Of a stretch of DNA of 64,000 nucleotides, positions 986 to 40,039 are shown in pieces (position 1 is the stretch's first letter; each line of letters begins with the position of its first letter). A model generated the notes under the pieces. That model saw nothing but the letters and a program-made list of their open reading frames with translations. It was not told the origin of the DNA and did not search any database. The position numbers were made by a program, and so were the translations under genes. The stretch is taken from contig NC_080559.1 in the NCBI RefSeq assembly GCF_030253575.1, positions 28,918,501 through 28,982,500 of the forward strand, in the 5' to 3' direction. The DNA is from Rhododendron vialii. Lineage: Eukaryota; Streptophyta; Magnoliopsida; Ericales; Ericaceae.

Positions 986-3900
986 ATGGCGGACGTTCAG
1001 ATGGCAGACGCTGAGACCTTCGCCTTCCAGGCCGAAATCAACCAGCTTCTGAGCCTAATCATCAACACCTTCTACAGCAACAAGGAGATATTCCTCCGTG
1101 AACTCATTAGCAATGCCTCTGACGTAAGTACCGATTCCAACTCCTATTCCACTCGTTGATGTATAGTTATATGTGTGTGCATACTTCTGTTCTGTTGTTT
1201 GTGACACTCAATTGGGGTTTTTTGGTTTTTGGTGTAGGCGCTGGATAAGATCCGATTCGAGAGCTTGACGGACAAGAGCAAACTCGATGGCCAGCCGGAG
1301 CTATTCATCAGGATCGTCCCTGACAAAACCAACAAGACTCTCTCTATAATTGACAGCGGTATTGGGATGACCAAAGCAGGTTAGTACCACCAATCCAATC
1401 CTCGTTCCCTGCCAATTTGCACAGAAATAAAAGAATCTATACGCGGAACAACTGAACTGTACAAGTTTTTTTTTCCACCAGTATTGTATCTTAATTTTGG
1501 CCTAATTCTTCATATGATCGATAGGAGAAACTTCGGTTTATTTGAATTGATTTTTCTTTTTCTATGTACTCCCTTCGTCACTAACCTCAAAAGGTTTGTT
1601 CCTGAATTCAACGATTGAAATAGTAACGATCATAACTCCTAAAATACGCAGTACATAAATAGAATTATTTTTCTTCTTACAGTGCAATTTTTTTGGGGGG
1701 GGTACTTGAGCATATTTTTCTCCTTTACTTTGGGGACTTAGTTAGAGTAAGGGGAGGCTAAAAAAGCAATGATTCATTTGTTTTGCTCGCCTGGTTAAAA
1801 GAGAATTATGGGACATCTAATAGAAGAAATAATTGATCAAAACTGGTGACGGATAGTTGTTTTGGTTGTTGTGGAGGGGTTGATGCTAATGTATTTTGGG
1901 TGGTTGTTTTGCCAGATTTGGTTAACAATCTGGGGACAATTGCGAGGTCTGGGACCAAAGAATTTATGGAGGCATTGCAGGCCGGGGCTGACGTGAGCAT
2001 GATTGGGCAATTTGGTGTTGGGTTTTACTCGGCGTATCTTGTTGCGGAGAAGGTGATTGTGACGTCAAAGCACAACGATGATGAGCAATACATTTGGGAA
2101 TCACAAGCTGGTGGCTCATTCACCATCACAAGGGATGTCAATGGTGAGCAGCTTGGCAGAGGAACCAAAATCACCCTCTTCCTCAAGGAAGATCAGGTAA
2201 CTAGACTACCCAATGAGTTAATGTTTGGTTGATTATAAGTCGTGGAGATGGGATAATTAGATGGAAAATTGAGATGCATTAATTTTTTTTTGGTATGCTC
2301 ATATATTCCATTTTTTGGAACATCATAATTTAGATATCATAACTTAGATCCAAGAAGCATTTATGTAGGGATTCCATTACATTACATGAGTAGATAAGAG
2401 CTACCATCGCTTTAATGTACCGCGGGATTCAAAATCAATTAGTGCATACTTGAACAACAAACCATACGTATAATTTGGGAATATTGTCAATTAAGATATA
2501 GGCAGTAGAGTTTCTAACAAATGAGTTGGCAGTGGAGATTTTAGCGAATGAGTAGCTTTAATTAATGGAAACGGTTATAAATGAAGTCGGTGATGTTTTT
2601 GCGGAAACATAACTCTAGTCTCTAAAGGGTGCGTAGCCCCGAGGAAGAAGAAAACACTTCACAAAGGTGCAGAAAAATACAACAGGGAGAAATAGTACTC
2701 CTAGTCTGATCTGCAACCAGTTAGGCAGTTATTCGGACTTGCTATTTAAGGCATTGATTAATTTTGGAAGGTGAACTGGAGATGCATAACTTGAAAGTTT
2801 TGAGATTGGCTATTTGGTTCTGGGACAACGAGAAATTTAGTTTTCATCTAACTTGCCTGCAACTTAGGAGGGAATTGCTGTGAATATTTGCAGTATTTTT
2901 AGGCATTCAATGTGTTGTTTCTGTTGCTGACTTTATAATCTGTTTCTTCAGTTGGAGTACTTGGAAGAGAGGAGGATCAAAGACCTTGTAAAGAAGCACT
3001 CCGAATTCATCAGCTACCCCATCTACCTCTGGACTGAAAAAACAACAGAGAAGGAAATTAGCGATGATGAAGACGATGAGCCAAAGAAGGAAGAAGCAGA
3101 GGGTGAAATTGAAGAGGTTGATGAGGAGAAAGAGAAGGACAAGCCGAAGAAGAAGAAGGTCAAAGAGGTTACCCATGAGTGGCAACTTATCAACAAGCAG
3201 AAACCCATCTGGCTTCGCAAGCCAGAGGAAATTACCAAGGAGGAATACGCCGCCTTCTACAAGAGCTTGACAAATGACTGGGAAGAGCACCTTGCTGTCA
3301 AACACTTCTCTGTCGAAGGGCAGCTCGAATTCAAAGCCATTCTCTTCATCCCGAAGAGAGCTCCTTTCGATTTATTTGACACCCGAAAGAAGATGAACAA
3401 CATCAAGCTCTATGTTCGGAGAGTCTTCATTATGGACAATTGTGAAGAGCTAATTTCGGAGTACCTTGGATTTGTCAAGGGTGTAGTAGACTCTGATGAC
3501 TTGCCACTCAACATCTCTCGTGAGATGCTGCAGCAAAACAAGATTCTCAAGGTGATTAGAAAGAACCTGGTGAAGAAATGTATCGAGATGTTCAACGAGA
3601 TTGCAGAGAACAAAGAGGATTACAACAAGTTCTACGAAGCTTTTTCAAAGAATTTGAAGTTGGGTATCCATGAGGATAGCCAAAACAGGGCGAAATTGGC
3701 TGATTTGCTCCGGTATCACTCAACCAAGAGCGGTGATGAATTGACTAGCTTGAAGGATTATGTCACAAGGATGAAGGAGGGTCAGAAAGATATCTATTAC
3801 ATCACCGGTGAAAGCAAGAAAGCTGTAGAGAACTCCCCATTCTTGGAGAGACTCAAGAAGAAAGGGTATGAAGTACTTTTCATGGTTGATGCCATAGATG

Positions 3901-4508
3901 AGTATGCTGTTGGGCAATTGAAGGAGTATGATGGGAAGAAGCTTGTTTCTGTAACAAAGGAGGGTTTGAAACTTGATGATGAGACGGAGGAAGAGAAAAA
4001 GAAAAAGGAGGAGAAGAAGAAATCGTTTGAGAATCTCTGCAAGACAATGAAGGACATTCTTGGAGACAGGGTGGAGAAAGTGGTGGTTTCTGATAGGATT
4101 GTGGATTCCCCTTGCTGTTTGGTGACTGGGGAGTATGGTTGGACTGCGAATATGGAGAGGATCATGAAGGCTCAGGCGCTGAGGGACAGTAGCATGGGGT
4201 CCTACATGTCGAGCAAGAAAACAATGGAGATCAACCCAGATAATGGAATCATGGAGGAGCTGAGGAAGAGAGCTGAGATCGACAAGAACGACAAGTCGGT
4301 GAAAGATCTTGTGCTGCTGCTGTTTGAGACGGCTCTGCTCACTTCTGGGTTCAGCCTTGATGATCCCAATACATTTGCAGCGAGGATTCACAGGATGCTG
4401 AAATTGGGTCTGAGCATTGATGAGGATGAGGGAGCCGAGGATGATGCCGACATGCCTGCTTTGGAGGAGGAGGGAAATGAGGAGAGCAAAATGGAGGAAG
4501 TGGACTGA
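986..4508 (+). CDS. HSP90: Cytosolic heat shock protein 90 (HSP90)
   Basis: Complete gene, four exons: 986-1123, 1238-1379, 1916-2196, 2952-4508; all introns are GT-AG and phases agree. The product is 705 aa, the usual size for cytosolic plant HSP90. It is an ATP-dependent chaperone dimer that matures kinases, receptors and NLR immune proteins. The N-terminal GHKL ATPase signatures are seen: [15 protein letters not shown] (about residues 32-46), [19 protein letters not shown], and [13 protein letters not shown]. An acidic/lysine-rich linker follows (about residues 215-257), then the middle and C-terminal dimerisation domains. The protein ends MEEVD, the TPR-cochaperone docking tail that marks the cytosolic form. 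There is no signal or transit peptide and no KDEL. The start is the first ATG after the TATA box and gives the family N-terminus [18 protein letters not shown]. Intron 2 (536 bp) and intron 3 (755 bp) show no other gene. Confidence 0.97.
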
Positions 4509-18845: not shown

Positions 18846-19384
18846 GGTACTCTCGCCCATTCATGAATGTAATTTTTCTTTCTTCATGTTTTTGTGTGTG
18901 CATGGCCTCATGTAGGAGTATGAAGTTTGTCTTACGGAAAGGCAGTTTTTTATTGTCAGTTTGATTGTTTCTAGTGAATTTTTTTCAACATTAATCTATA
19001 TTTTATATTCTTACGTTCGATTTCTTTCATCGAGACGAATACTGTGGTGTAAATTTTGACCCGAATCTAATACTAAAAATTAAGAGAAAGCAACTCCTCC
19101 TATATAAAGATGGTATTGCCGAAAAGTCACCAAAGAGTCAGGTCAAAGGGGGTCTTGTCGTAGTAGCAAACCTTGTATTTACGTACGACATTAAAGCCCC
19201 GATAATGATTTTAGGAGGCCGCTAAATAGTTTCTAATTTTTAATATATACTGTAGTACTGTACTATGTATGTTTGGGCTCAAACTTCGTACAAGTTTTGA
19301 TTGATGGGTGATTTACGGGCCGATCCATTTTTAATTGGAAGCAACATCTAATCTTGCTTATACCAAAGCTTTCCAATCTGAGTT

Positions 19385-19565
19385 TTTTTTTTTTCCTTTA
19401 TTTTTTTTTTTTGGTAATGTCATTTTCATTGAAAACCAAACCATTACAGGGCATTCTTCCGAAAACAAATCTTACACTCAAAGAATTCTAGTTAAACCCA
19501 GGACCTCTAATCAACAAGAACTAATAAACCAAACCTACCTAACTACCACTAATTCAACAGACTAG
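19385..19565 (-). mobile_element. LINE 3'-end-like fragment (minus strand)
   Basis: Read on the minus strand, the block ends in CAATGAAAATGACATTACC followed by a run of A (the T-rich tract at 19384-19412), as plant L1 3' ends do. It is too short to carry reverse transcriptase. The same block is present in the right duplication unit near 26655-26830, so the insertion predates the duplication. Confidence 0.4.
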
Positions 19566-21403
19566 TTTCAAACTAGACTAGTGATGTGATAACCCCATCG
19601 TCATTGGTTTTCTTCACGTGCCTCCTATAGCTCACGCAAGCTCTCAATTCTCCGCCAACTCTATAATTTAACCCAGTTCTAATTTGTTTTCTTCACATGA
19701 CTCAATAAGCGATAAACCCATATCCCCTGACCGGGACAGAAATGAGAGTACCCAATAATTACCCGGTCGGAGTTCAGGTCAAGGGTCGGGACCGCCTCAT
19801 AGTGCTTTTCGGATTGGGATCGATACAGCAAAACCCGGCCCGGCCAATGCCATGGACCATAACTTCAAAGAAAGGTGCTGATTGATGGGGGCTAGCTGTT
19901 GAATTAAATGCTGGGAACTTTCCATCGTCTTTTTGACTACCTTTTTGGAAAGTCATGAAGTGAGCACCACGGAAGCAATAGTACTGCTCTGTGATAGGCC
20001 ATTTTTGGAGCACTACAAGGCTACATTACGTAACAATAATACATACTTCCTCACTAACCTGAGAAACGGGTGTGAAACCGACATGCTCCATTATTTTTCT
20101 GAAAACAACTTAATTAAGACACACATCTTCTTCTTCTTCTTCTTCTGTTTTTGTATTTGATGTGGAAGGGATGCGGAAACTACATTTAAAGCTGAAATGT
20201 GAAGTGCGTTCCACGTTCAAAATTTGTACGGAAAATGGAAATGATTACTTGTAAAAATATTACCAAAATCGTTAAAATAGCATCAGGAAGTCTTACACGT
20301 ATTATATTTAATTATCAGTTAAATAGTATGGCAACCAAGTAACTTATACTCTCGCGCTGATGGATGGTAAATTTGTAATTCCACAAGAATTAGTCGAGTT
20401 ACGAGTAAATTGGTCTGAACACCTAATTGTAAAAAAAATCAAGTTACTTGCCAGAAAAACTACGAAATTGTAGGCAAAATGTTCAAAAGCATATTTGGAG
20501 AGGTTGTGAGAAGTGCATGAATTTCGAAGGTGTAGAGAGATTGACAAAATTACCGAAACTGAAGTTCAGGATTATTCTGTTGCCATTCCAAAACAACTTA
20601 ATAACTCCTTAAGTAGTACTACCTTGTAATTACATTTCAAAGTTTTAATTACCTTGAAAACTGCAAAAATTTCAGAGTTTTCTGGTTAGAGGAAACTAAT
20701 AAATTTTTCGGTGTCGAGGGGATATTATCATGTCTGCAATTTCAGTCGTTTAAACGTGTTTTAAAAAGTTCGAATTTTAGACATGGAAAAAAAAGAAGGG
20801 AGAGTGATCGGGTGAGAGGAGAGAGAGTGGAGAAATCTGGACCATCCAAATGTGTTGAGTACTGCCACGTGGTACCCACTCGGGATCCAAAAATTTCTGG
20901 CAGGAGACTCCCATTCAAAGTTGATGACCTTTTCTTACTATTGTGTGTGCGTTGACTAGGAACTAGGAAGAGTCGTGGCACGTAGTTTATGGCTACGCTA
21001 CGCGTGTACGATTCCCATTCAGAGAGAGAGAGAGCGGTCGCCTTTTTCGCCTGAGGAAGAAGTGAGGGGGAATTGCTGTTCAGTGGGGGTTGGGGCAATT
21101 TATGCCTAATTCATGGGACACTTTTTCCAAATTGTCCAGCCATGGAAAGGAAAAGAATAATTCCCGATACATGATATTGAAGACAAAAATACCCCTCTCT
21201 ATTGTAATACACACTCAGGGAGCAATGAACACACATTCAAGGAGCAATGTACACACACTCAGGGAGTAGTATTATATGATTGAAAGTGCAATATTATGTG
21301 ATTAAAAGAGCAGTGAAGTTACGTCCAACGATTCCCAAGTCAATGAATTTCCACCAATACCTTATGTACATGATGCCGTTTTGGAATTTTTTTTTGTGTT
21401 GAA

Positions 21404-22305
21404 ACATTTGGTTTTATCATTCTCTTAGAACTCTTCAACGAGAGCCCTAGAGCTAAAAATTAATTATGATTCTTTAGGATAAAATGATCAGAAAAATAAA
21501 ATTTTTGCACCAGTTCAACCGGATTGAAAATCAAAACACTTAATTTTTTTCATTTGGTTTTATGGTTCTCTTAGGGCTTTTCAACGAGAGCCCTACAGTT
21601 AAAAATTAATTATGATCCTTTAAAATAAAATAATAAAAAAAATAAAATATTTGCATCAGTTTAAAATGATTGAAAAATTGAAACACTTAATTTTTTCATT
21701 TGGTTTTATTGTTCTCTTAAGGCTTTTCAACGAGAGCTCTACAGTTAAAAATTAATTATGATCCTTTAAGATAAAATTATAAGAAAAATAAAATCTTTGC
21801 ATCGGTTCAAAATGATTGAAAAATTGGAACACTTAATTTTTTCATTAGGTTTTATTGTTCACTTAGGGCTTTTCAACAAGAGCCCTACAATTAAAAATTA
21901 ATTATGATCCTTTAAGATAAAATGATAAGAAAAATAAGATCTTTGCACCGGTTCAAAATGATTGAAAAATTGAAACACTTAATTTTTTTCATTTGGTTTT
22001 ATGGTTCTTTTAGGACTCTTCAATCAGAGCCCTAGAGTTAAAATTAAATTATGATCTTTTAAGATAAAATGATTAGAAAAATAAAATCAATTTTTTTCTT
22101 AAATGATCATAATTAGGTTTTAGCTCTAGGACTCTCGTTGAAAAGCCCTAAGAGAACCACAAACCAAATGAAAAAATTAAGTGTTCTAATTTTTAATCCG
22201 TTTGAACTAGTGCAAAGATCTTATTTTTCTGATCATTTTATCAAAAATGATCATAATTAATTTTTAACTCTAGGACTCTCGTTGAAGAACTCTAAGAGAA
22301 GGACA
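21404..22305. repeat. 146-bp tandem array followed by inverted copies
   Basis: ATTTGGTTTTAT recurs at about 21404, 21551, 21697, 21842 and 21990, a period of 145-148 bp. Each unit carries TCTTAGGGCTTTTCAACGAG, TTAAAAATTAATTATGATC and ATTGAAAAATTGAAACACTT. From about 22100 to 22305 the same modules appear reverse-complemented (CTCGTTGAAAAGCCCTAAGA, then CTCGTTGAAGAACTCTAAGA), giving a large palindrome. Confidence 0.9.
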
Positions 22306-22324
22306 ACAACAACAACAAAAAAAT

Positions 22325-22830
22325 CCAATCCCAGATTCAACTTAGATCCATAAAAGGGGCAATTTAGATTCATAAAATAGGCAATTTAGGTCCAAACCTA
22401 GATTCAACTACATATCGACTCATGATCTTATACAAGGGGCAACTTAGATTCATAGAAGGGACAACTTAAATCAATGGAAGGGGCAACTTAAATTCATAGA
22501 ATGGGCAATTTAGGTCCAAACCCAGATTTAACTACATATCGACTCATGATCTCATACAAGGGACAACTTAGGTTCATAGAAAGGGTAACTTAAGTTTATA
22601 GAAGGGGCAACTTAGGTCCAAACCCAGATTCAATTTAGGTCCATAAAAGGGGCAACTTAGATTCATAGAAGAGGTAACTTAGGTCCAAACCCAGATTCAA
22701 CTACATATCAACTCATAATCTCATACAATGGGCAACTTAGGTTCATAGAAGGAGCAACTTAAATTTATATAAGGGGCAACTTAAGTTCATAAAAGGGGCA
22801 ACTTGGATCCAAACCCAGATTCAACTACAA
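22325..22830. repeat. Minisatellite of GGGGCAACTTAGRTTCATAGA units
   Basis: A 20-23 bp module, variants of AAGGGGCAACTTAGATTCAT, is repeated about 15 times. It alternates with a longer module GGTCCAAACCCAGATTCAAC plus TACATATCGACTCATGATCT. The result is a higher-order repeat of roughly 110-170 bp. Confidence 0.85.
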
Positions 22831-23698
22831 ATTGACTCCATGTATGGGGAATTTCTTTTTCTCCGTTTCATGTATTGGGAATTTTGTTTTCTCCGTTTCA
22901 TTTATGTGCAATTTCACAAAAACTTGAGGGCATAATAGTCATTTTAGGTGGCCCTTTCCATGTATTGGCAATTTCTTTTCTTCTTTTCATGTCTAGATGA
23001 ATTTGGAAAAAAGTGGTCCATGAGTTTGGCATTATTTGCCCTTCTTACCACTGTCTGGTAATTCCCCCAAGAAGTGATCTCTGCAATAAACAATGGCTAA
23101 TGATGGGCCTTCGATTTGAAAATTACTTCTTCCATAACGACTGTTTGCCGTCACAGGTTGGCAATTCCGTCGTCAAATGCCATCGCGGTAGGACCCAATA
23201 ATCTGAAACTACACGCCGTTCAATGCAGTATTGAAACCAACGACACCGTTTCGTCAGGCTTCCTTTTTGTCTCCGTTTGGGGTCGGATTTTCTTACATGC
23301 CATGTATGTGTGCTCGTGCGCAAGGAGGAGTGTGAGAGCGTCCGCAAATAACACTCCAAACTACTCTGTATTGGAATTTTCTTGAAAAAAAATTGAAAGT
23401 GCTAGTACAAAATGATGATTAAAAACTGGAACATATGATTTATTCAAGGATTATAAGTGATCACATGACTGCACATTATTACCGGCAAAAAAAATAAAAG
23501 AAAAAACGACTGCAAATTATTGTGTGCAGTGAGACAAAGAAAACCTTGACTCTCTCTCAATATAGTAGTATAAAAATGTAGTTGAAGACAAAAAGATCCC
23601 AACTCTCAATTTTAAATTCTTAGAATTTAGAGTTTTGTTTTAAAAAAAAATGAAAGAGAGAAAAACGTGGAAGGGGAGGAGGAGAAGAGAGAAAAAAC

Positions 23699-23722
23699 GG
23701 GGGGGGGGGGGGGGGGGGGGGG
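23699..23722. repeat. 24-nt poly(G) run
   Basis: Uninterrupted G tract inside the left-unit-specific insertion. Confidence 0.95.
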
Positions 23723-23769
23723 AGAGAGAGAAACTTATGAAATGTTATTCTATGTCCTAACAAGGTATC

Positions 23770-24570
23770 TGTTTACCAATTTTTTCCTTAATCGAAATCG
23801 ATAGAAATTTCGAGAAACAATGCCAACAACAAAAATAAGGGCGAAATATGACTTGTCTCCACAAACGGATTTGAGATTCCTAGCCGTATTTCAGGACTCC
23901 ACCGGAAAAGAAATGGCGAATGAATCAAATGCTATTTTTTGGTGGTGATGAATTGACTCGTAAAAGAAGACTGTCACCCGCCAATCTTTAAGAACCGAAT
24001 CGACCAATCGATTTGGGGGCAGAATGGATTGATGGTTTAGTGAAGTGGGGTGGAGCGGAAGAAAAATAACAAATGGACTATGTTATTTTTCCGAGGTAGA
24101 ATTACAATCAAGAAGGACGGATTCTCATCAAAAGTAAGAAAATTAAGTTAATTCTACTCCTACTCCTAATTATACCCGAATGGGTTGATAAGACAAAAAT
24201 TAAGAACAAAGTTAAGACTTTGATTTTGTTGGAGAGATTATAATGAAGCCAAAAGAGACTATTTATAGGAAATAACAAATGTGTAAGAAATAACTTTCTA
24301 ACTTTTCGCTACTCTTCATTCTTTTAATTTGCTTCCAAGTGTCCAAATAACTTCCCTTCAACTTCAAAGTGTGTAGGACAATGACAAGTGTCTTTTTAAC
24401 TTCCAAATGTGTAGGAGCATGTCAAGTGTCCTGCACTTTATTAAAATACAAACAAATAAAAGAAATAAAAAATAGTTATATTATTAATACGAAATAATAA
24501 AATAGGAAGCATTCTCATAATTACCACATTTCGGTCGATTATCGACAAGCGGTGAAATATGATACAAACA
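23770..24570 (-). mobile_element. Solo LTR, older relative of the LTR element at 33058-36854
   Basis: Starts TGTTTACCAATTTTTTCC and ends ATGATACAAACA. It shares with the 701-bp LTRs the segments CGTATTTCAGGACT, ATTCTACTCCTACTCCTAAT, GACTATTTATAG and GGTCGATTATCGACA in the same order. It is flanked by GTATC and GTACC, a near-match 5-bp duplication. It is about 800 bp, and its divergence from the young LTRs shows an older insertion. No coding part is left; a fossil solo LTR. Confidence 0.75.
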
Positions 24571-24697
24571 GTACCGTCACGTAGTATTCTAAATTCATTT
24601 TACACAATATATGTCGGTTAGTGTACAGAATGAGACTAATGTTATCATGCATCGAACATGAGACAAAAAAAATATTAGATTATATTTTTTAACACTA

Positions 24698-25067
24698 GAG
24701 TTGTGCCCGTTCGATACACATAGTCGAAAAAAACTAATGTTAATTTTTTATCTAATGCATTGAACGGGTACAATATTTGATTTTTTTGGGAGTACAAATT
24801 AATTTGATTTAGCTTTTTTTAAGTAATTTAATTTGATTTAATATTTGTTGCAATCTGAGTCGTTCATTGCCTAATATGGACGGCCCGGATTTGCCCAACA
24901 CTCATGTTGTTCCTGAGGTATAGCACGCACTCTGGGTTTCTTTTCTATCAACTAGCGCCGTTCCTGTTCGATGCACGGGACAAAATATTCGTGTGGCTCT
25001 GCTACAAAATTTCGAAACTCACAAAAATTATTGTTTGTCCCGTGCATCGAACGAGAAACGACGCTAG
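24698..25067. mobile_element. Helitron-3'-end-like motifs (three occurrences)
   Basis: CACTAGAGTTGTGCCCGTTC (24701) and ACTAGCGCCGTTCCTGTTCG (24951) are reverse-strand, and CCCGTGCATCGAACGAG...CTAG (25040-25067) forward-strand, versions of a hairpin-plus-CTAG terminus. The last two face each other and form an inverted pair about 115 bp long. Confidence 0.4.
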
Positions 25068-25085
25068 TATATATGTGTGGTTCAG
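25067..25085 (+). promoter_or_regulatory. TATA box of the left HIPP gene
   Basis: GTATATATGTGTGGTTCAGT lies about 145 bp before the ATG and matches the right copy (CTATATATATGTGAGG near 30757). In the left copy the upstream neighbour is the inserted element, not the original CT-rich promoter DNA. Confidence 0.55.
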
Positions 25086-25216
25086 TGATACATCCATTCA
25101 CTCCTCTCTATCTTTTTGGAATTCTCCGCTCTAAAATATTCTCTCCTTTCTGTTTTGATCTTACACTTTTCACTGAGGAATTCTCCCTCCTCCTCAGATA
25201 ACCAAAACTCGAGAAA

Positions 25217-26683
25217 ATGAAGGTTTGTTTTCTTACTCTGGAGTCTGGTCCATCTTCAGCCCATTCTATACCCACCGATTCTGATTCCCCCAATCCCTTT
25301 TGTTAGATTCTGATTCTCCCAACCCCATTTTTGCGACTCTTGCTTTTGTTTCCTTCAGTACTGTCTTTTTAACAGAGTTCAGATTTTATGATTAAGCTGA
25401 TTAAAGTTTAATTTCATTAATCCCTAATTCAGATCCTTTTTTTGGGGTTTTGTTTATGACAGAAAGTGGTGCTTAAATTGGATTTCCACGACGACAAAGG
25501 CAAGCAAAAGGCCATGAAGAAAGTCTCTGGCCTCAACGGTATACTGTTTTTAGAAATCTCAACAACAACTATTTTACTGTAAAATTCAATTTCTGTTTGG
25601 ATAGTTAATATTGTGGGTTTAAAATAGAGGGACTAGTGTTCAATTTCACCATTCATACAATCTTTCTATATATGTAGTAGTAGTTAGCTTCTTAAACTTT
25701 AATAGATGATACGATAGAATCAAGGGAATTTACTCTCTTCGGATACTTGTGCAACTAGATTGGATTTCCAATCTTCTCGATCGTATTTTAAACGGTCATG
25801 CTATTGACAACCCAAGTGTCAATAAGTAATAAAAATACAAAAATGTTATGATTTATGGAGAAAATGTTACTTATGGTATTGCTAAAAAGTTGCGATTTTA
25901 GTATAAAAGTTACGAATGCACCAAAATATTATGAATCATAATGAAAATGTTACGAATCGTATTGTTGAAAAGTTATGAGTTCTAGAACAAAAGTTACGAA
26001 ACACACTAAAATATTATGAATGAACCATACAATATGTGCATATCGTACACACTTTTAAAGGATATGTATTGTAGACTTTCCCTAGTTTTCATGCACATTC
26101 AACATTTTTCAAGGCATTTAACACAAAAAATTGGTCTGTGTGTTTTTTTGGCCATTTTCTAGCTTTATTGCATTTTTCTATGTTAAATCCTTGCATTTAA
26201 AGTCCGGATGCAGAAACAGAGAATCCAAGAAACAAAACCCAGATCAATTTTACAAAGATATTGATGACTTTTTTGTGTTTGTTATTTGCAGGGGTTGATT
26301 CAATTGCTATGGACATGAAGGACAAGAAATTGACGGTGACAGGGGACATAGATCCAGTGAAGGTGGCGGCTAAACTGAGGAAGCTCTGCCACACGGAGAT
26401 AGTCACGGTCGGGTCGGCAAAAGAGCCGGAGAAGAAGAAGGAGGAGCCTAAGAAAGAGGAGCCCAAGAAATCAGGAGGAGATGACAAGAAGAAAGCTGAG
26501 GCTGTGAAGCTCCATCAGATAGCCTATCCCAATTATTACCCACAATATCCCCATGCAGATCATCCTCCCCCTTACCTGCAGCACCAGAACTTTTACAGGA
26601 TTGCAGAAGAAGACCCCAATTCTTGCTTATACCAAAGCTTTCCAATCTTAGTTCTTTTTTTTTTCCTTTTTTTTTTTTTTTAA
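25217..26683 (+). CDS. HIPP: HIPP-type heavy-metal-associated domain protein, left copy, altered C-terminus
   Basis: Exons 25217-25222, 25463-25538, 26292-26683; 157 aa. Residues 1-70 form an HMA fold ([20 protein letters not shown], then [18 protein letters not shown]). The CxxC metal-binding pair is absent, as in the HIPP subclade with MKKVVLK starts. A Lys/Glu/Pro-rich linker ([16 protein letters not shown]) and a Tyr/His/Pro-rich tail follow. The right copy ends SCVIC, a CaaX prenylation box. Here, after Cys139, the duplication junction adds [18 protein letters not shown] and a stop, encoded by the T-rich start of the next unit. Prenylation should therefore be lost and a hydrophobic tail gained. 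The gene's own 3' UTR is also replaced. It may be expressed, mislocalised or a pseudogene; the sequence alone does not say. Confidence 0.85.
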
Positions 26684-27272
26684 GGTAATGTCATTTTCAT
26701 TGAAAACGAAACCATTACAGGGCATTCTCCCGAAAACAAATCTTACACTCAAAGAATTCTCGTTAAACCCAGGACCTCTAATCAACAAGAACTAATAAAT
26801 CTAACCTACCTAACTACCACTAATTCAACAGACTAGTTACAAACTAGACTAGTGATTTGATAACCCTATCGTCATTGGTTTTCTTCACTTGCCTCCACGA
26901 GCTCATGCAAGCTCTCAATTCTCCGCCAACTCTAGATCTAACCCAATTCTAATTTGCTTTCTTCACATGCCTCAATAAGCGGTAAACCCATATCCCCTGA
27001 CCGGGACAGAAATGAGAGTGTTCAGGTCAAGGGTCGGGACCACCTTGTAGTGCTTTTCGGGTTGGGATCGATACAGCAAAATCCGGCCCGGCCAATGCCA
27101 TGGACCATAGCTTCAAAGAGAGGTGCTGATTGATGGGGGCTAGCTGTTGAATTAAATGCTGGGAACTTTCCATCGTCTTTTTGACTACCTTTTTGGAAAG
27201 TCATGAAGTGAGCACCAAGGAAGCAATAGTACTGCTCTGTGATAGGCCATTTTTGGAGCACTACAAGGCTAA

Positions 27273-28030
27273 GGGCTCATTCCGGAATCGAAATAAGAAC
27301 TTATTTTTTGTCTAATAAAAAGCTTTGTTCCCGAAAATAAGAAGGTTGATACTTATTTTAGAAGAATTTATATAGGTACCGACCGGCCGAGGAGGGAAAT
27401 CGTATCGACGGCCACGTCGGGCCGTCTCCGGCTACTGGACGGTCGATCCGAGCCGTCCAAAAATTCTAAAAAAAAAAACCGAGGGGGCTTTCACGAAAAT
27501 CAACGGCATCCGAGGTGTGTAGGGTGCTTGATCCGAGCACCCCTTTTTTGTGTGAAATCATATACACGAAAAATGGGTGCTCGGATTAAGCACCCTACTC
27601 ACCTTGGATGCCGTTAATTCTCGCGTGTAAGCCCCCTCGGTTTTTTATTTTAGAATTTTTGGACGGCTCGGATCGGCCGTCCGGTGGCCGGAGACGGTCC
27701 GGCGCGGCCGTCGGTACGATTTCCCTCCGCCGGCGCCCATTCTCATAGCAACAATCTTTTTTTTTTTTTGTATAAGGCAACTTCAAGCTCAAAAATTATG
27801 TGTTTACGCAAATAATTTTCTTATCACTATGGATCTTGTTTGATAAATCTCATTGAGATTTTTAATACGGTGCAAAAAAAATTGAATTTTTTTTTTCATT
27901 TACATTATTTTTAAATTTGAAAATGTGAAAGGAACTTTTTATTTGGATTTTGTGGAATGACCCTTCTTATTTTTTAATGAAAAATTTCAAAATAAGTACT
28001 TATTTTTTAAGAAAGTTTCGGAACGGAGCC
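27273..28030. mobile_element. PIF/Harbinger-like MITE carrying a nested foldback
   Basis: Ends GGGCTCATTCCGGAATCG (27273) and GTTTCGGAACGGAGCC (28030), flanked by the 3-bp duplication TAA (27270-27272 and 28031-28033). The left unit has the uninterrupted site (GGCTACATTACG near 20020). AATAAGAACTTATTTTTT and AATAAGTACTTATTTTTT lie just inside the ends. The middle is interrupted by foldback copy B. No coding capacity. Confidence 0.8.
27375..27745. mobile_element. GC-rich foldback element, copy B
   Basis: The arms around a centre near 27560 pair over about 180 bp: GACGGTCGATCCGAGCCGTC against GGACGGCTCGGATCGGCCGT, AACCGAGGGGGCTTTC against AGCCCCCTCGGTT, and GGTGCTTGATCCGAGCACCC against GGGTGCTCGGATTAAGCACC. 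Related to the element at 139-531 (shared AAAAATTCTAAAA and ATCAACGGCATCCGA modules). It is inserted in the MITE at 27273-28030. Confidence 0.8.
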
Positions 28031-28113
28031 TAAATTACGTAATTCATACTTCCCCACTAACCTGAGAAACGGGTGTGGAATCGACATGCTCCATTATTTT
28101 CCTGAAAGAACAA

Positions 28114-28352
28114 GGCTCCGTTCCGGAAAGGAAAATAAGTACTTATTTTTTAAGAAAGTAATTTTAAGCTAAAAAATCATGTACTTACGCAAATTATTTT
28201 CCTATCAATATGGATCTTATTTGATAGATCTCATTGAGATCTTTAATACGGTGCAAAAAAAATTAAAAAATTATTTTTCATTTATATTATTTTTGAGTTT
28301 AAAAATATGAAATAAGTACTTATTTTTTAAGAAGATATTCTGGAACGGGGCC
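28114..28352. mobile_element. MITE, GGCTCCGTTCCGG...GGAACGGGGCC
   Basis: Inverted ends GGCTCCGTTCCGGAAAGG and TATTCTGGAACGGGGCC with AATAAGTACTTATTTTTTAA at both subtermini; 239 bp, same family as 27273 and 29484. Absent from the matching site in the left unit (about 20105). Confidence 0.8.
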
Positions 28353-28365
28353 TTAATCAAGACAC

Positions 28366-28412
28366 ACATCATCATCATCATCATCATCATCTTCTTCTTC
28401 TTCTTCTTCTTC
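28366..28412. repeat. (ATC)n/(TTC)n microsatellite
   Basis: About seven CAT/ATC units followed by about seven CTT units. The left unit has only a short CTT run at 20127-20145. Confidence 0.9.
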
Positions 28413-28790
28413 TGTTTTTGTATTGATGGGGAAGAGATGCGGAAACTACCTTAAAAGCTGAAATGTGAAGTGTGTTCCACGTTCAAAATTTGTACAGAAA
28501 ATGGAAATGATTACTCTTTTAAAATTTACCAAAATTGTTAAAATGGCATCACGAGTCTTACATTATATTTAATTATCAGTTATGGCAACCAAGTAACTTA
28601 TATCTCGCTGATGGGTGGTAAATTTATAATTCCACAGGAATTAATCAAGTTATGCGTAAATTGACCCAAACACTTATTTGTAAAAAATAAAATCAAGTTA
28701 CTTGTCCGAAAACTACGAAATTGTAGGGAAAATGTTCAAAACCATATTTGGAGAGGTTGTGAGAAGTGCATGAATTTCAAAGATGTAGTG

Positions 28791-29422
28791 TGTAGGGGGC
28801 ATAAATATTCATAGTTCGGAAGGTCCAAAGGGGTCGCGGACTAATTCAGCATTTGCAATGGACATGTCACTCTGTGGATCCATTCGCATTTGGAGCTACA
28901 GGAAGCGCCAGTTTCTGTAGATGTCCCTAGCGTTCAGCGATCATTTCCCTAACATTGAACGGTCAATTCCTTAACGTTTGGCGGTCATTTCCCTAACGTT
29001 TAGCACTTATTGTAACGTTCAGCTGAATTCTACTCCCTAAAGATCTAACAAATAGCCAAATGTCAGTTAGAAGCTTCTGTGAACAGATGGAAGACATGTG
29101 TGATAGAGCAAATTTCTTGACGTATGACGTCGCCCGAACGAGACAAGTGTAAGAGGGCGTGGGACGCACGCCTAACTTACTCAGTACTCGAATCCTAGCC
29201 TATAAATAGCTCAGTACCCCTACGCACATGAGGGATTGCATTCCTGACCAAATAACACACCCTTCTCTCATTCTAAACACATCCTGCTTGTACTAACTTA
29301 CTTGTTGGAGCTTCTTCCTGGAGGTACACCCCCTTCGATTTTCAGGTGCCAAGTTCACCGTTCTATCCCTCCATCGTTCAAACAAAAGGGAAGAAGGATA
29401 CATGGTTGTTTCAGCCCCCACA
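28791..29422 (+). mobile_element. Solo LTR of an LTR retrotransposon (632 bp)
   Basis: Begins TGTAGGGGGC and ends GCCCCCACA, flanked by a perfect 5-bp duplication TAGTG (28786-28790 and 29423-29427). A TATAAATAG box lies at 29201, as in an LTR promoter. The left unit has the empty site (AAGGTGTAGAGAGATTGACA near 20528). It therefore entered after the duplication, and the internal part has been removed by LTR-LTR recombination. Family not resolved; unrelated to the 701-bp LTRs. Confidence 0.88.
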
Positions 29423-29483
29423 TAGTGATTGACAAAATTAACTGAAGTTCGGGATTATTCTATTGCCATTCCAAAACTACTTA

Positions 29484-29812
29484 GAGCCCGTTCCAGAAAC
29501 CTTCTTATTTTATAAGTACTTATTTTGGAGCTTTGTTCCATAAAATCCAAATAAGCAGCTTATTTTCACATTTTCAAACTCAAAAATAATGTAAATGAAA
29601 AATAATTTTTCAATTTTTTTTGCACCGTATTAAAGATCTCAATGAGATCTATCAAACAAGATCCATAGTGATAGAAAAATTATTTGCGTAAGCACATGAT
29701 TTTTGAGCTTGAAATTACCTTTTTAAAAAATAAGTACTTATTCACCCATTTATGAAACACACTTTATTATTAGACAAAAAATAAGTTCTTATTCCGGTTT
29801 TGAAACTGGCCC
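29484..29812. mobile_element. PIF/Harbinger-like MITE with TTA duplication
   Basis: Ends GAGCCCGTTCCAGAAACC and GGTTTTGAAACTGGCCC, flanked by TTA at 29481-29483 and 29813-29815. The left unit shows the empty site (CAAAACAACTTAATAACTCC near 20590). Non-coding, 329 bp. Confidence 0.85.
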
Positions 29813-30909
29813 TTAATAACTCCTGAAGTAGTACTACTTGTAATTACATTTCAAAGTTTTAACTACCTTGAAAACTGCAAAAAGAAGAGTTTTCTGGTCA
29901 GAGGGAATTGATAAATGTTTTTTGGTGCCGAGCAGGTACTATTCTGTTTGTAATCACAGTCGTCCAAACTTATTTTGAACGGTTCGAATTTTAGACTGAG
30001 AAAAAAAGAAAGAAAGTGGGGAGTAAAGAAATTTGGACCCAAATCTGCTCAGCACCGAAAAATTTCTCGCAGGAGACTCCCATTCAAAGTTGATGACCTT
30101 TTCTTGCTATTGTGTGTGCGTTGACTGGAACTAGGAAGAGTCTTGGCACACGGTTTATGGCTATTCTACACGTGTACGATTCCTATTCAGAAGGAGAGAG
30201 AGAGGAGTCGTCTTTTTCGCCTGAGGAAGAAGTTATCTGCAATAAATAATGCCAATGATGGGCCGTTGATTTGAAAATTACTACTCCATAACGACTGTTA
30301 GCCGTCACAGGTTGGCAATTCCGTCAAATGCCATCATTCCCGGTAGGACCTAAAAATCTGAAACTACGCCGTTCAATGCAGTATTGCAACCAACCACACC
30401 GTTTCGTCAGGCTTCCTTTTTGTCTCCGTTTGGGGTCGGATTTTCTTACATGCCACATATGCGTGCTCGTGCGTGAGGAGGAGCGTGAGAGTATCCGTAA
30501 ATAATCCTCCAAACTATTCGGTATTGGAATTCGTGTGAGAAAAGATTAAGAGCGCAAATACAGAACGATGATTAAAAATGGGAACAAATGTTTATTCAAG
30601 GATTATAAGTGACTAATCACATGACTGCAAATTATGCAAAAAAAAAAAAAAAGAAAAAAGAAAAAACGACTGCAAATTATTGTGTGCAGTGAAACAAAGA
30701 AGACCTTGACTCAGTCTCTCTCCCTCTCTCCCTCTCTATCTCCCTCTCTCTCTCACTATATATATGTGAGGTTCAGTGATACATCCATTCACTCCTCTCT
30801 ATCTTCTTGGAATTCTCCGCTCTAAAATATTTTCTCCTTTCTGTTCTGATCTTACACTTTTCACTGAGGAATTCTCCCTCCTCCTCAGATAACCAAAACT
30901 CAAGAGAAA

Positions 30910-32104
30910 ATGAAGGTTTGTTTTCTTACTCTGGAGTCTGGTCCATCTTCAGCCCATTCTATACCCACCGATTCTGATTCCCCCAATCCCTTTTGTTAGA
31001 TTCTGATTCTCCCAACCCCATTTTTGCGGCTCTTGTTTTTGTTTCCCTTAGTACTGTCTTTTTAACAGGGTTCAGATTCTATGATTAAGCTGATTAAAGT
31101 TTAATTCCATTAATCCCTAATTCAGATCCTTTTTTTGGGGTTTTGTTTATGACAGAAAGTGGTGCTTAAATTGGATTTCCACGACGACAAAGGCAAGCAA
31201 AAGGCCATGAAGACAGTCTCTAGCCTCAACGGTATACTGTTTTTAGAAATCTCAACAATAACTATTTTAAAATTCAATTTCTGTTTGGATAGTTAATAAT
31301 GGTTTAAATTAGAGGGACTCGTGTTCAATTTCACCATTCGTACAATCTTTCTATGTAATAGTAGGTAGCTTCTTAAACTTTAATATATGATGACATGATA
31401 GAATCAAGGGAATTTACTTTCTTCGGATTCTTATACAACTAGATCGGATTTCCACTCTTCTTGATCGTATTTTAAACGGTTATGCTGTTGACACTTGGGT
31501 GTCAATAAACCGATAAAAATACAAAAAAGTATTGTTTTCATGCAAATTCAACATTTTTCGAGGCATTTAACACATTAAAAATTGCTGTGTGTGTGTGTGT
31601 GTGTGTGTGTTTTGCCATTTTCTAGCCTTATTGCATTTTTCTATGTTAAATCCTTGCATTTAAAATCCGGATGCAGAAACAGAGAATCCAAGAAACAAAA
31701 CCCAGATCAATTTTACAAAGATATTGATGACTTTTTTGTGTTTGTTATTTGCAGGGGTTGATTCAATTGCGATGGACATGAAGGACAAGAAATTGACGGT
31801 GACAGGGGACATAGATCCAGTGACGGTGGTGGCTAAACTGAGGAAGCTCTGCCACACGGAGATAGTCACGGTCGGGCCGGCGAAAGAGCCGGAGAAGAAG
31901 AAGGAGGAGCCTAAGAAAGAGGAGCCCAAGAAAGCAGGAGGAGATGACAAGAAGAAAGATGAGGCTGTGAAGCTCCATCAGATAGCCTATCCCAATTACT
32001 ATTACCAACAATATCCCCATGCCAATCATCCTCCCCCTTACATGCAGCACCAGAACTATTACAGGATTGCAGAAGAAGACCCCAATTCTTGTGTCATTTG
32101 CTAA
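30910..32104 (+). CDS. HIPP: HIPP-type heavy-metal-associated isoprenylated plant protein, right copy (intact)
   Basis: Exons 30910-30915, 31156-31231, 31755-32104; 143 aa. N-terminal HMA fold ([38 protein letters not shown]) without the CxxC pair, so direct metal binding by the usual pair is unlikely. Then a Lys/Glu/Pro linker, a Tyr/Gln/His/Pro-rich segment, and the terminal CVIC CaaX box for farnesylation and membrane attachment. HIPPs act in metal handling, stress and pathogen interactions at membranes and in the nucleus. Compared with the left copy it differs at a few residues (for example Lys to Thr in MKTVSSLNG) and has one extra Gln. The promoter has a CT-rich block at 30712-30755 and TATATATATG near 30759. 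Intron 2 has a (TG)n run at 31588-31611. It keeps the original downstream flank, so it is the complete gene. Confidence 0.93.
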
Positions 32105-33057: not shown

Positions 33058-33758
33058 TGTTTACCAATATTTCCTCAATCGAAATCGACGGAGATTTTGG
33101 GAAACAAAGCCAACAACAAAAATAAGGGCGAATGCGGCCATGTCTCCACAAGACGGATCCGTGGTTCCACGCCGTATTTCAGGACTTCACCGGAAGAGAA
33201 ATGGCAGTCGAGTCAAATGTGAGATTAAGAACGAAATTGAAGACAAATAGAAGAGACTTCCATCAATCTTCAACGATTGATTTATCGCCGTGAGCGACAC
33301 ATCGAAGATCCTAAGTTAAGCTTAGAATATGAAATTCTACTCCTACTCCTAATTATAACCCGAATGGGTTAGTAATGCCAAAAATTAAGACAAATAAAGA
33401 TAGACTTTGATTTGTTGGAGAGGAATTACAATGAAGTCTTAAAAGACTATTTATAGAAAACAACAAACGTAGGAAATAACTTCCTAACTTCTCCACTAGT
33501 CTTCATTCAATCTTTTGCTTCCACTTGTCAAAATAACTTCCCACTTCCCTTCAAATGTGTAGGAGCATGACAAGTGTCCTTTTAACTTCCACATGTGTAG
33601 GAGCAAGCCAAGTGTCCTGCATGCAAATAATAATAAAAGGAATACTAATATTAGTTCTAATATTAATACGAATACTTAATAATAATAAAATAGGAAGCAT
33701 TCTCATAATTGCCACCTTTCGGTCGATCATCGACAGGCGGTGAAATATGGTGTAAACA
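33058..33758 (-). repeat. Left LTR (3' LTR in element orientation)
   Basis: 701 bp, direct repeat of 36154-36854; a TATA box CTATAAATAG is on the minus strand at 33448-33457. Confidence 0.95.
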
Positions 33759-36153
33759 ATGCCCCCCTTATTCATTTGGGTGAAGAGCTAACGTAACCCA
33801 AGTGAATAATTTCACTAGTTTTAAATCACCCCTCTGTCGATATCGACGGGTAATAACTCTTTATGGTGTAAACATTTATGCCCTCCAACTCAATTGGGCA
33901 ATCAATTGATACCAGAAACAGATCATGTTGGACATACGTGGCCTATCGAATAAAGGCCTATATATCAAAACTCTACGAATGGCATATCGATAAAAGGATT
34001 TATGCCATGAGCCTTAATCAAGCACAAGCATTTGTTTACTTAATTTCTCCCCCAACATTTGATAAAGAAAAGGCCAAAACACGCGCGTAGCAAACGACAA
34101 ACATTCCCCTTGATCAAATTATGGGAGTTGAGATTCTTTCAATAAAGAAAAGGCCAAAACACGCTCGTAGCAAACGACAAACATTCCCTCTATCGAATTC
34201 ATCCGAGATTTCGGAAAACAAAGTTGAAACAAGAGTAAGGGCCAAAAGCAAGTAATAACCTTTTACAGTGAAAACATTTATGCCCCCAACTTTCGAAGAG
34301 TTTTTGATAAATTTTACACCAATCTTTTCATTTTTCGACTGGTACCATAAAGCCTTCAAGGCTTAATAACCACCGTCGAATGGTGGCATGCCTCAGTCGA
34401 TTAGTTTCCCTTAGGCTTTGATTCCTACAGGAAGGAAACCGGGAACGTCAAAACATGGTTAGTCGATCAGAGCACTACGCATATGCCATGAGCCTTGCCT
34501 AATCCCCACAATAATGAACTTTAAAGTCACAAACAACAGCCAATTAATAGGCATCATTTGGCTTCACACGTTGGCTACTATATATATGCATTAATACCAA
34601 ATACCAACATCTATTAGCCAACTCCATCAAAAACTAATTTTCCGTGTCCTCCAAAAATGTATATTGATCGACAGAAATCAATACGCAGAGTATTTATAGC
34701 CATGTTTGGCTGAAAACATTCTCCATGGTTAAATTTTCACCATTACTCTTCTTAACCAGTACGGAGGAATGGGAGGATCATTTTCTACGTCGACCATCTA
34801 TGGTCTAAATTGAAAAACTCTAGTCGAATGACTATTTTCATGATTCGACTTGCTTGAGTTTCAAATTTTCGAGCCCCTAATTGGCTCTTCTAAAGATGAG
34901 TTTGCCCCCCTTGCAAACTCGATATCAAAAGAGGCCTAATTCTCATTTCAATCATCCTTACTAAAATCTGGATGAAGGAGACATAGATGCCAACAAGACC
35001 TTTGAAAATTTTCCAGTCGCCAACGATGAACCATGGCCTCTTTTTAAAATAGTTGAAAATCATAAACTATGAAGGCCTTTAGGAACACAGGTGGCGCCCA
35101 AAATTACAAGTCTCTGCATGTCCATTATCGACTGCAAAGTGTTCAAAATCGACTAGACCAAGCAACCAATCCAATCGTTGCCATATATCCAAAGATGAAT
35201 TTCTGCCCCCCAAATTCATCATTGAAGGGAGGATTATTTCTCATTCTATATTTGCCCACCAAATTTGTTGGCGCCGTGTTTCCTCCATAAAAACCATTCT
35301 TGTGGTTTTCGGTTAAAGGCAAAACCTTCAAAACTACTGTCATGGCTTTACAGTTCCCCAGTCGAATCATTTTACCCGAGGCAAGGACATCGTCCAAACC
35401 TTTAATACAAGATTGAGAAACAATTTTGTTTCCCATTTGATATAAACCACTGAGAATTATTCCAAGAGGTAGCCAGTGAATTAATGGCTTCTTTGCACAA
35501 ATAAATGGTCAAACCCTTGCAAGGTTTTTCAATCAAATTATTCTCATGACACAACTCCTTTTGAGTTTCAACGCCAAAGCCATTTACTTCATATGATTTG
35601 GCTCTTTTGAAAATGAATTTTTGCCCCCCAAATCCATTGTCGGAAAGAGGGTCATTTCCAATTCCGTAATTTGAAAAACATGCTTTTCATCCTTATGAAA
35701 TTCTGGATGAGAGGGATACAATACCAGTAAAGCAATTCAAATTTTTCCGTAGCCTATGATAAATAATGGTCACTTTCATAGTTAAGCACTTGAAGACCGT
35801 GAATAATCTTCTAACACCCATGAAAAATGGCATGAAGGATTGGTCTTCTATGTAATTAATTGATGCCAAAAATCCACAGATTGTCCCACTTAATAATGGT
35901 TAATCTTCCTATTGGATGACATTCTTTAAACACATAAATTGGTTTCTTATGAACCCTCTGATTTTGGCCAGTTGGCCATTAATTGGCCGTTTCACTTTCT
36001 GTCGCCCAGAATGATTCCAAAGTTGGCCAATAAATGGCCATTATTTCATTTTTGCAAATTGTTCAAGCCTTACATGCAAGGCTTGCATTTTCACATTTAA
36101 TCTTTGCCATTACTTCCGATTTAGTAATGTTGCCCTCCTTCTAGCGCCAAAAT

Positions 36154-36854
36154 TGTTTACCAATATTTCCTCAATCGAAATCGACGGAGATTTTGGGAAA
36201 CAAAGCCAACAACAAAAATAAGGGCGAATGCGGCCATGTCTCCACAAGACGGATCCGTGGTTCCACGCCGTATTTCAGGACTTCACCGGAAGAGAAATGG
36301 CAGTCGAGTCAAATGTGAGATTAAGAACGAAATTGAAGACAAATAGAAGAGACTTCCATCAATCTTCAACGATTGATTTATCGCCGTGAGCGACACATCG
36401 AAGATCCTAAGTTAAGCTTAGAATATGAAATTCTACTCCTACTCCTAATTATAACCCGAATGGGTTAGTAATGCCAAAAATTAAGACAAATAAAGATAGA
36501 CTTTGATTTGTTGGAGAGGAATTACAATGAAGTCTTAAAAGACTATTTATAGAAAACAACAAACGTAGGAAATAACTTCCTAACTTCTCCACTAGTCTTC
36601 ATTCAATCTTTTGCTTCCACTTGTCAAAATAACTTCCCACTTCCCTTCAAATGTGTAGGAGCATGACAAGTGTCCTTTTAACTTCCACATGTGTAGGAGC
36701 AAGCCAAGTGTCCTGCATGCAAATAATAATAAAAGGAATACTAATATTAGTTCTAATATTAATACGAATACTTAATAATAATAAAATAGGAAGCATTCTC
36801 ATAATTGCCACCTTTCGGTCGATCATCGACAGGCGGTGAAATATGGTGTAAACA
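36154..36854 (-). repeat. Right LTR (5' LTR in element orientation)
   Basis: 701 bp, direct repeat of 33058-33758; followed by the 5-bp target duplication GTTTC. Confidence 0.95.
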
Positions 36855-39475: not shown

Positions 39476-40039
39476 CTATTCCTTTTCCTCTCTCCAAATA
39501 TCTGTCCAATTCTTCTGTGCTTCTTCAAACCCAAGAGGTGACCCCTTCTTCTCTGCATCCCAGCTTGTAGACAAAGTTCCATAAGCAATCCCAAGAGCTG
39601 AAGCCCCAAAAGTGATAAAAGTTGTCAAGAATGCAAACCAGAGTGGCACGTCCCACACATGTTGTTCCTTCAACACATCGAAAACTCGCAGAAGGACTAT
39701 GCCGGTGACCAGGGGAGCCCCAACATAAAACAAGATTCTCCCAATCATTCTCTCAAACACCACTTCTGGTATCTTCTCGTCGTTGTCGTTGTCCTTGCCG
39801 GCATTTTTCTCGTCGGACTTTTTTTGAACAGGTTCTATGCGTGCATTCTTTTCCTTTTGCGAATTTGCTGGTGGTGTATTGAAGCCTTTGGCTTTGGCAT
39901 GAACTCTCCATATTCTGTTGTGGAGCTTTGGGGTTGTTGGCTTCACTGGAGATGGGCTGGTAATGTGGGTAAGTGGGTGTTCTGCGAAGGTAAGAGTTTT
40001 CATGGTTCTTTTGGATTTGTCACTTGGGATAACACGCAA
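39476..40039 (-). CDS. PAM68L: PAM68-like protein, chloroplast (DUF3464)
   Basis: Single-exon frame of 187 aa; stop at 39476-39478. The N-terminal 50 residues are Ser/Thr/Lys-rich like a chloroplast transit peptide. A charged segment (about 60-90) follows. The conserved core is PEVVFERMIGRILFYVGAPL, KEQHVWDVPLW, and the C-terminal FGASALGIAYGTLSTSWDAE with GFEEAQKNWTDIW. Two membrane spans are seen, about 101-119 and 134-154. PAM68 helps photosystem II assembly, and its paralogue PAM68L helps assembly of the thylakoid NDH complex. I prefer PAM68L because of length and position next to PrimPol and SARD4, as I recall for At5g52780, but PAM68 itself is not excluded. Met13 (codon 40003-40001, MKTLTFAEH) is a possible start. 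Confidence 0.88.
   Translation of the reverse strand: MRVIPSDKSKRTMKTLTFAEHPLTHITSPSPVKPTTPKLHNRIWRVHAKAKGFNTPPANSQKEKNARIEPVQKKSDEKNAGKDNDNDEKIPEVVFERMIGRILFYVGAPLVTGIVLLRVFDVLKEQHVWDVPLWFAFLTTFITFGASALGIAYGTLSTSWDAEKKGSPLGFEEAQKNWTDIWREEKE

What the first reader, a model, noticed from the sequence alone, without database searches (positions are those of the whole stretch)
19352..32091. Tandem segmental duplication with a base-level junction
Two units in direct orientation, about 7.3 and 5.5 kb, share four homologous blocks in the same order. The left unit starts at CTAATCTTGCTTATACC, the right unit ends at AATTCTTGTGTCATTT, and between them lies AATTCTTG|CTTATACC. That is exactly what a single tandem duplication with TCTTG microhomology would leave. 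No transposon sits at the join. Identity of roughly 95% in a 250-bp sample, with several private insertions, means it is not an assembly artefact of identical copies.
Basis: seen in the sequence. Interest (0 to 1): 0.75.

Follow-up and report, generated by a model that had tools for sequence, protein, structure and literature searches.

The report
Plant gene duplicated without its membrane anchor
A plant gene appears to have been copied head-to-tail in one step, with the break inside its last four amino acids, so one copy lost its lipid-attachment signal and gained a new tail; it is a clear example of a common kind of event.

Summary
Units 19352-26625 and 26621-32091 are direct tandem copies: eight collinear local alignments, 3,373 aligned columns, 93.4% identity, joined at exactly 5 bp of microhomology, TCTTG. 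Private insertions in both units show an old, real duplication, not an assembly echo. Each unit carries a three-exon HMA-domain gene. The 3' breakpoint falls in the codon of the CaaX cysteine. The right copy ends ...[12 protein letters not shown], as a HIPP does. The left copy reads ...DPNSC, then [22 protein letters not shown], encoded by duplicated upstream DNA: it was most simply born without the prenylation box. The four nearest paralogs in the genome end CVIx. All five datable amino-acid changes in the HMA part fall on the left copy, dN/dS between copies is 0.98 on few changes, and a 1.5-kb insertion ends directly before the left TATA box. The left copy is most likely a decaying partial duplicate, the right the working gene. 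Its frame is still open, however (10-15% expected if neutral), so a retained protein with a hydrophobic tail in place of a lipid is not excluded. Ordinary mechanism, well resolved.

The parts
19352..26625 (+). Left duplication unit
   Evidence: blastn and global alignment
26621..32091 (+). Right duplication unit
26621..26625 (+). Junction microhomology TCTTG (also 19352-19356 and 32087-32091)
   Evidence: exact string search; 0.67% of random junctions share 5 bp or more
25217..26683 (+). Left HMA/HIPP-type gene, exons 25217-25222, 25463-25538, 26292-26683; 157 aa; CaaX replaced by [18 protein letters not shown]
   Evidence: GT..AG at both introns, Pfam HMA 3.3e-9; gene model inferred, transcription not tested
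30910..32104 (+). Right HMA/HIPP-type gene, exons 30910-30915, 31156-31231, 31755-32104; 143 aa; ends CVIC
   Evidence: Pfam HMA 2e-9
26626..26683 (+). Novel C-terminal coding stretch of the left gene, read from the start of the right unit (homologous to 19357 onward)
21066..23068 (.). Left-private insertion, 9-bp target duplication AAGAAGTGA, GGGGGAATT inverted ends (MULE-like, label recalled)
   Evidence: with flank included in the query, 37 of 40 other matches begin at 21063-21067 and none earlier
23563..25067 (.). Left-private composite insertion ending directly before the left TATA box (25068); contains an LTR-like piece (24150-24572, 81% to the LTRs at 33058/36154)
   Evidence: full-length family matches stop at about 25066-25074 while the right unit's match starts at 25068; its 5' boundary was not tested this way
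25840..26083 (.). Left-private short element in intron 2 (ends approximate)
   Evidence: 39 other substantial matches from 40 scored candidates, most spanning query bases 19-21 to 261-268 of a query with flanks
27273..28030 (.). Right-private insertion, GGGCTC.. ends, possible 3-bp TAA target duplication (MITE-like, label recalled; palindrome 27391-27728 inside)
28114..28352 (.). Right-private MITE-like insertion, no clean target duplication found
28791..29422 (.). Right-private insertion, TAGTG target duplication, TG..CA ends (solo-LTR-like, label recalled)
   Evidence: copy number not measured
29484..29812 (.). Right-private MITE-like insertion, possible 3-bp TTA target duplication
   Evidence: a 4-bp alternative ranked just above it

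Best explanation
In an ancestor of this plant a segment running from far upstream of an HMA/HIPP-type gene to the codon of its CaaX cysteine was tandemly duplicated by end-joining or template switching at a 5-bp TCTTG match (structure shown; enzyme pathway inferred). The right copy kept the original 3' end (CVIC, stop, 3' flank) and received duplicated upstream DNA. The left copy kept the original 5' flank but lost its last three codons, stop and 3' flank; its frame runs into the duplicated upstream DNA and ends after 18 new, mostly hydrophobic residues. Later both units received separate transposon insertions. The left copy, without its prenylation box and original 3' end, and with a 1.5-kb insertion directly upstream of its TATA box, is most likely a decaying duplicate (inferred), while the right copy remains the functional gene (inferred).
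For: Junction and collinearity. Flanks not duplicated. Private insertions: with boundaries checked against family members. Gene models with intact splice sites and frame; HMA domain; 23 solved sequences match, led by an integrated HMA domain of Rmo2 and the rice protein Os03g0111400, with HIPP6 lower. CaaX loss is derived: the four nearest paralogs end CVIM, CVIM, CVIS, CVIC. Relaxation: dN 0.034, dS 0.035, ratio 0.98 over 138 codons; of 14 codon substitutions 5 amino-acid and 1 silent polarise to the left copy, 1 amino-acid to the right, 7 are ambiguous; in the HMA part amino-acid changes are 5 to 0. Insertion directly before the left TATA box.
Against: The left frame is still open, with one in-frame 3-bp indel in 416 coding columns against 12 indels in 887 noncoding columns nearby; two of those 12 are pieces of the intron-2 element. 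A neutral simulation of the left branch keeps the frame open in 10% of runs with all 12 counted and 15% with 10, and at those rates one indel or fewer is expected with probability 0.02-0.05, so some constraint on at least one copy is likely. Splice sites and a TATA box at -149 are intact. The counts are small (11 amino-acid, 3 silent), the polarising rule is lenient (a match to any one of five paralogs), and no expression data exist here.
Confidence: 0.8

Rival explanations
1. The left copy is a retained, expressed gene: an HMA protein without prenylation (HPP-like), or one anchored by its new hydrophobic tail.
For: Open frame with intact splice sites; 10-15% open under neutrality; the tail [15 protein letters not shown] has mean Kyte-Doolittle 2.67 against a maximum of 0.79 for any 15 residues of the right protein; all 25 poly-T length combinations tried (-2 to +2 in both runs) give an F-rich tail, though many contain a P or S and 8 read on to a longer end.
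Against: dN/dS 0.98; five of five datable HMA amino-acid changes on the left branch; insertion directly before TATA; original 3' end lost; the frame ends in poly-T runs that slip easily.
Confidence: 0.14
2. The tandem copies arose by unequal crossing-over or repeat-mediated recombination rather than at a microhomology junction.
For: A weakly repetitive T-rich stretch lies 27-46 bp inside the unit.
Against: The two breakpoints share only 5 bp and lie in otherwise unrelated sequence; no flank matches inside the units.
Confidence: 0.04
3. The CaaX box was lost later (deletion or gene conversion) and not at birth.
For: Cannot be formally excluded without a relative.
Against: The loss coincides to the base with the duplication junction, so a second event is not needed.
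Confidence: 0.02
4. Assembly artefact (false tandem duplication).
For: No reads were available here.
Against: 6.6% divergence and seven private insertions; false copies are near identical.
Confidence: 0.01

Closest known systems
Partial and chimeric gene duplicates (Katju 2012, PMC3449122; passages read)
   Same: The derived copy lacks part of the ORF and completes it with other sequence; the passages give such duplicates as 56-86% of all duplicates in C. elegans and D. melanogaster.
   Different: Here only the last three codons are lost, and the new end comes from duplicated upstream DNA of the same gene.
HIPP and HPP families of plant HMA proteins (PMC12835825; passages read)
   Same: HMA domain, and in the right copy a C-terminal isoprenylation motif; HPPs lack that motif.
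   Different: The left copy lost the motif at a duplication breakpoint; no expression shown. Neither copy has a CxxC in its HMA segment (read from the sequences).
PEP1 of Arabis alpina (PMC3527215; passages read)
   Same: Partial tandem duplication of promoter and gene parts in a plant.
   Different: At PEP1 the first exon is duplicated and two transcripts share downstream exons; here nearly the whole gene is duplicated and the 3' end of one copy is lost.
Transmembrane segments born from thymine-rich DNA (PMC7005711; abstract and outline seen)
   Same: Hydrophobic residues encoded by T-rich noncoding DNA.
   Different: Described for emerging yeast ORFs, not for the tail of a duplicated gene.

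Membership tests
Tandem segmental duplication | Direct, adjacent, collinear copies with unduplicated flanks | tested here: met
Tandem segmental duplication | Single copy in an outgroup species | not testable with these tools
   The genome tool states that G000 has no relatives held
HIPP (right copy) | HMA domain | tested here: met
   PF00403, 2e-9, 38.1 bits against a cut-off of 24.8
HIPP (right copy) | C-terminal CaaX isoprenylation motif | tested here: met
   Sequence ends CVIC; prenylation itself not tested
HIPP (left copy) | C-terminal CaaX isoprenylation motif | tested here: not met
   The cysteine is followed by 18 further residues
HPP (left copy) | HMA domain without isoprenylation motif, in an expressed protein | tested here: inconclusive
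   Sequence features met; expression not testable here
Pseudogene (left copy) | Disrupted reading frame | tested here: not met
   Frame open over all shared codons; signs of relaxed constraint only

The most novel reading that the evidence does not exclude
The duplication swapped one membrane anchor for another in a single step: the left copy lost its prenyl box and gained, from T-rich upstream DNA, a hydrophobic C-terminal tail that could act as a tail anchor, giving an HMA protein on a different membrane. A variant reading is that left exons 1-2 splice onto right exon 3, so that the CaaX-bearing gene gains a second promoter.
Probability: 0.06. Interest if true: 0.6.

Novelty: new member of a known kind. 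Interest (0 to 1): 0.27.

Why it matters
It shows to the base how a HIPP-type gene can become HPP-like in one event, and that a breakpoint a few codons from the stop can change the predicted membrane fate of a protein whose domain stays whole. HMA proteins of these families are recurrent pathogen targets and occur at plasmodesmata, and mutating the isoprenylation motif compromised that localisation in two of them (PMC12835825, passages), so copies without the box are worth noting. As a genome event it is ordinary.

Tried and rejected
Transposon at the join: none found. tRNA genes or Rfam families at gathering score in the window: none. Relatives in other plants: no plant collection is held; viral, prokaryote, phage and plasmid collections were not searched. 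Settling the direction of the TGA/TTA difference in the tail (the left-unit start reads TGA, the junction copy TTA) failed: of the two loci with weak matches looked at, one printed a sequence that does not align at that position and the other printed nothing. The figure 'actual 28' compares the duplicated copies with each other and is not used. No structure prediction was run, because the spliced proteins are not letter-for-letter translations of the window.

Mended on checking: searches had queries ending exactly at the supposed element boundaries and so could not test them; searches repeated them with flanks and do. The neutral simulation counted the intron-2 element as two indels; one search gives the result with and without them. 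I raised the retained-gene rival from 0.13 to 0.14 for that reason, and lowered the crossing-over rival from 0.05 to 0.04 to keep the sum.

Literature: the listings (18 of 18 papers; 15 of 38; 6 of 6; 15 of 23) show no title or abstract start that describes loss of a CaaX box in a HIPP at a duplication junction; most listed papers were not opened, and the library is open-licence only.

Species, inferred only: the genome (532,647,506 bp in 13 contigs; C1 49,052,500 bp) is close to haplotype A of Rhododendron vialii in PMC10338486 (532,733,691 bp, 13 scaffolds, largest 49,061,468; passages read), but the figures are not identical.

Full report
Observation. The window is 64 kb of a genome held as 532,647,506 bp in 13 contigs, a plant by its genes. 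Self-comparison confirms two direct units, 19352-26625 and 26621-32091. Eight plus-strand local alignments lie in the same order in both. A global alignment gives 3,373 aligned columns, 93.4% identity, 136 transitions, 88 transversions, K2P 0.070; the six blocks of 400 columns or more range from 88% to 96%. The quoted strings occur as stated, once each. The sequence shared by both ends is TCTTG, 5 bp and no more; of about 200,000 random junctions from the window 0.67% shared 5 bp or more. The flanks outside the units match nothing inside them. In a genome search the first 1,359 bp of the left unit matched only this locus (40 of 122 candidates scored), although the right unit's version of the start gave two short weak matches elsewhere. 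This is the footprint of one tandem duplication.

Age and reality. Both units carry private insertions. Left: 21066-23068, with a 9-bp target duplication and GGGGGAATT inverted ends; with flank in the query, 37 of 40 other genome matches begin at 21063-21067 and none earlier. 23563-25067, composite: full-length family matches end at about 25066-25074, where the right unit's homology takes over at 25068. About 25840-26083, a short element with many copies. Right: 27273-28030, 28114-28352, 28791-29422 (TAGTG target duplication) and 29484-29812; the 3-bp target duplications proposed for the first and last are weak evidence, the second has none, and the copy number of the third could not be measured. 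Class names are recalled labels. These differences argue strongly against an assembly echo.

The gene. Each unit carries a three-exon gene. Left: 25217-25222, 25463-25538, 26292-26683 (157 aa). Right: 30910-30915, 31156-31231, 31755-32104 (143 aa). Introns begin GT and end AG in both. Both proteins match Pfam HMA above its cut-off. Of 23 solved sequences matched, the best are an integrated HMA domain of Rmo2 and the rice protein Os03g0111400; HIPP6 stands lower. The right protein ends NSCVIC, a CaaX box, and so fits the definition of a HIPP (PMC12835825, passages).

The breakpoint. AATTCTTGTGTCATTTGC encodes N-S-C-V-I-C. TCTTG covers the serine codon and two bases of the cysteine codon. In the left copy the frame passes from the cysteine into duplicated upstream DNA and gives [18 protein letters not shown] before a stop. 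The simplest reading is that the duplication itself removed the CaaX box. The ancestral state is the CaaX: the four nearest paralogs (two on C2, one each on C7 and C1) end CVIM, CVIM, CVIS and CVIC. The fifth (C3, L028) does not align through the C-terminus and its listed frame ends without a CaaX. Over all 13 other places, 6 have a cysteine four residues before the end of the listed frame and 7 do not; several of the 7 are distant or cut short.

Fate of the copies. There are 11 amino-acid and 3 silent substitutions in 138 codons: dN 0.034, dS 0.035, ratio 0.98. With five paralogs as outgroups, calling a change derived when only the other copy matches any outgroup, 5 amino-acid and 1 silent substitutions fall on the left copy, 1 amino-acid substitution and one codon indel on the right (both in the poorly aligned C-terminal region), and 7 substitutions are ambiguous; in the HMA part amino-acid changes are 5 to 0. 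Against decay: the left frame is intact with one in-frame indel, and a neutral simulation keeps it open in 10% of runs, or 15% if the two gaps made by the intron-2 element are left out. TATATA stands at -149 in the left and -153 in the right copy, but in the left copy the 1.5-kb insertion ends directly before it. I conclude: relaxed and probably decaying left copy, constrained right copy; retention of the left copy is not excluded.

The new tail. Its last 15 residues have mean Kyte-Doolittle hydropathy 2.67, against a maximum of 0.79 for any 15 residues of the right protein. It stays F-rich for all 25 poly-T length combinations tried, though many bring in a P or S and 8 read on to a longer end. 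Thymine-rich DNA is reported to have wide potential to yield transmembrane domains in yeast (PMC7005711, abstract). A swap of a lipid anchor for a tail anchor is therefore the boldest open reading; nothing here shows that it occurs. The left-unit start has TGA where the junction copy has TTA, so the tail may at first have ended after SFPI; the direction could not be settled.

Context. Partial duplicates that complete their frame with other sequence are a recognised, frequent class (PMC3449122, passages), and PEP1 is a functional partial tandem duplication in a plant (PMC3527215, passages). A review of plant prenylation has a section on gene duplication with the HPP/HIPP family as its example; that section, read whole, does not mention loss at a breakpoint (PMC12609287; elsewhere passages only). 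The listings show nothing that reports this event. The case is a new member of a known kind.

Noticed in passing
33058-36854: A young LTR-type element about 950 bp downstream of the right gene: its two 701-bp LTRs are identical and it is flanked by GTTTC on both sides. A relative of its LTR, 81% identical, sits in the left-private insertion at 24150-24572.
   Followed up: partly
L041 (G000:C2:45111000-45120500): Two further HIPP-type genes of this genome lie in tandem about 3.9 kb apart; both end CVIM.
   Followed up: partly
55106-55421: Perfect tandem duplicate of 158 bp, two identical copies.
   Followed up: no
2931-4505; 39479-40039; 49921-51755: Neighbouring genes: HSP90 (PF00183), a PAM68-type protein on the minus strand (PF11947), and an ornithine cyclodeaminase/mu-crystallin gene in two pieces (PF02423).
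   Followed up: partly
21405-22300: Inside the left-private element, a 146-bp unit repeated 4.7 times (21405-22088) followed by inverted copies to 22300.
   Followed up: no
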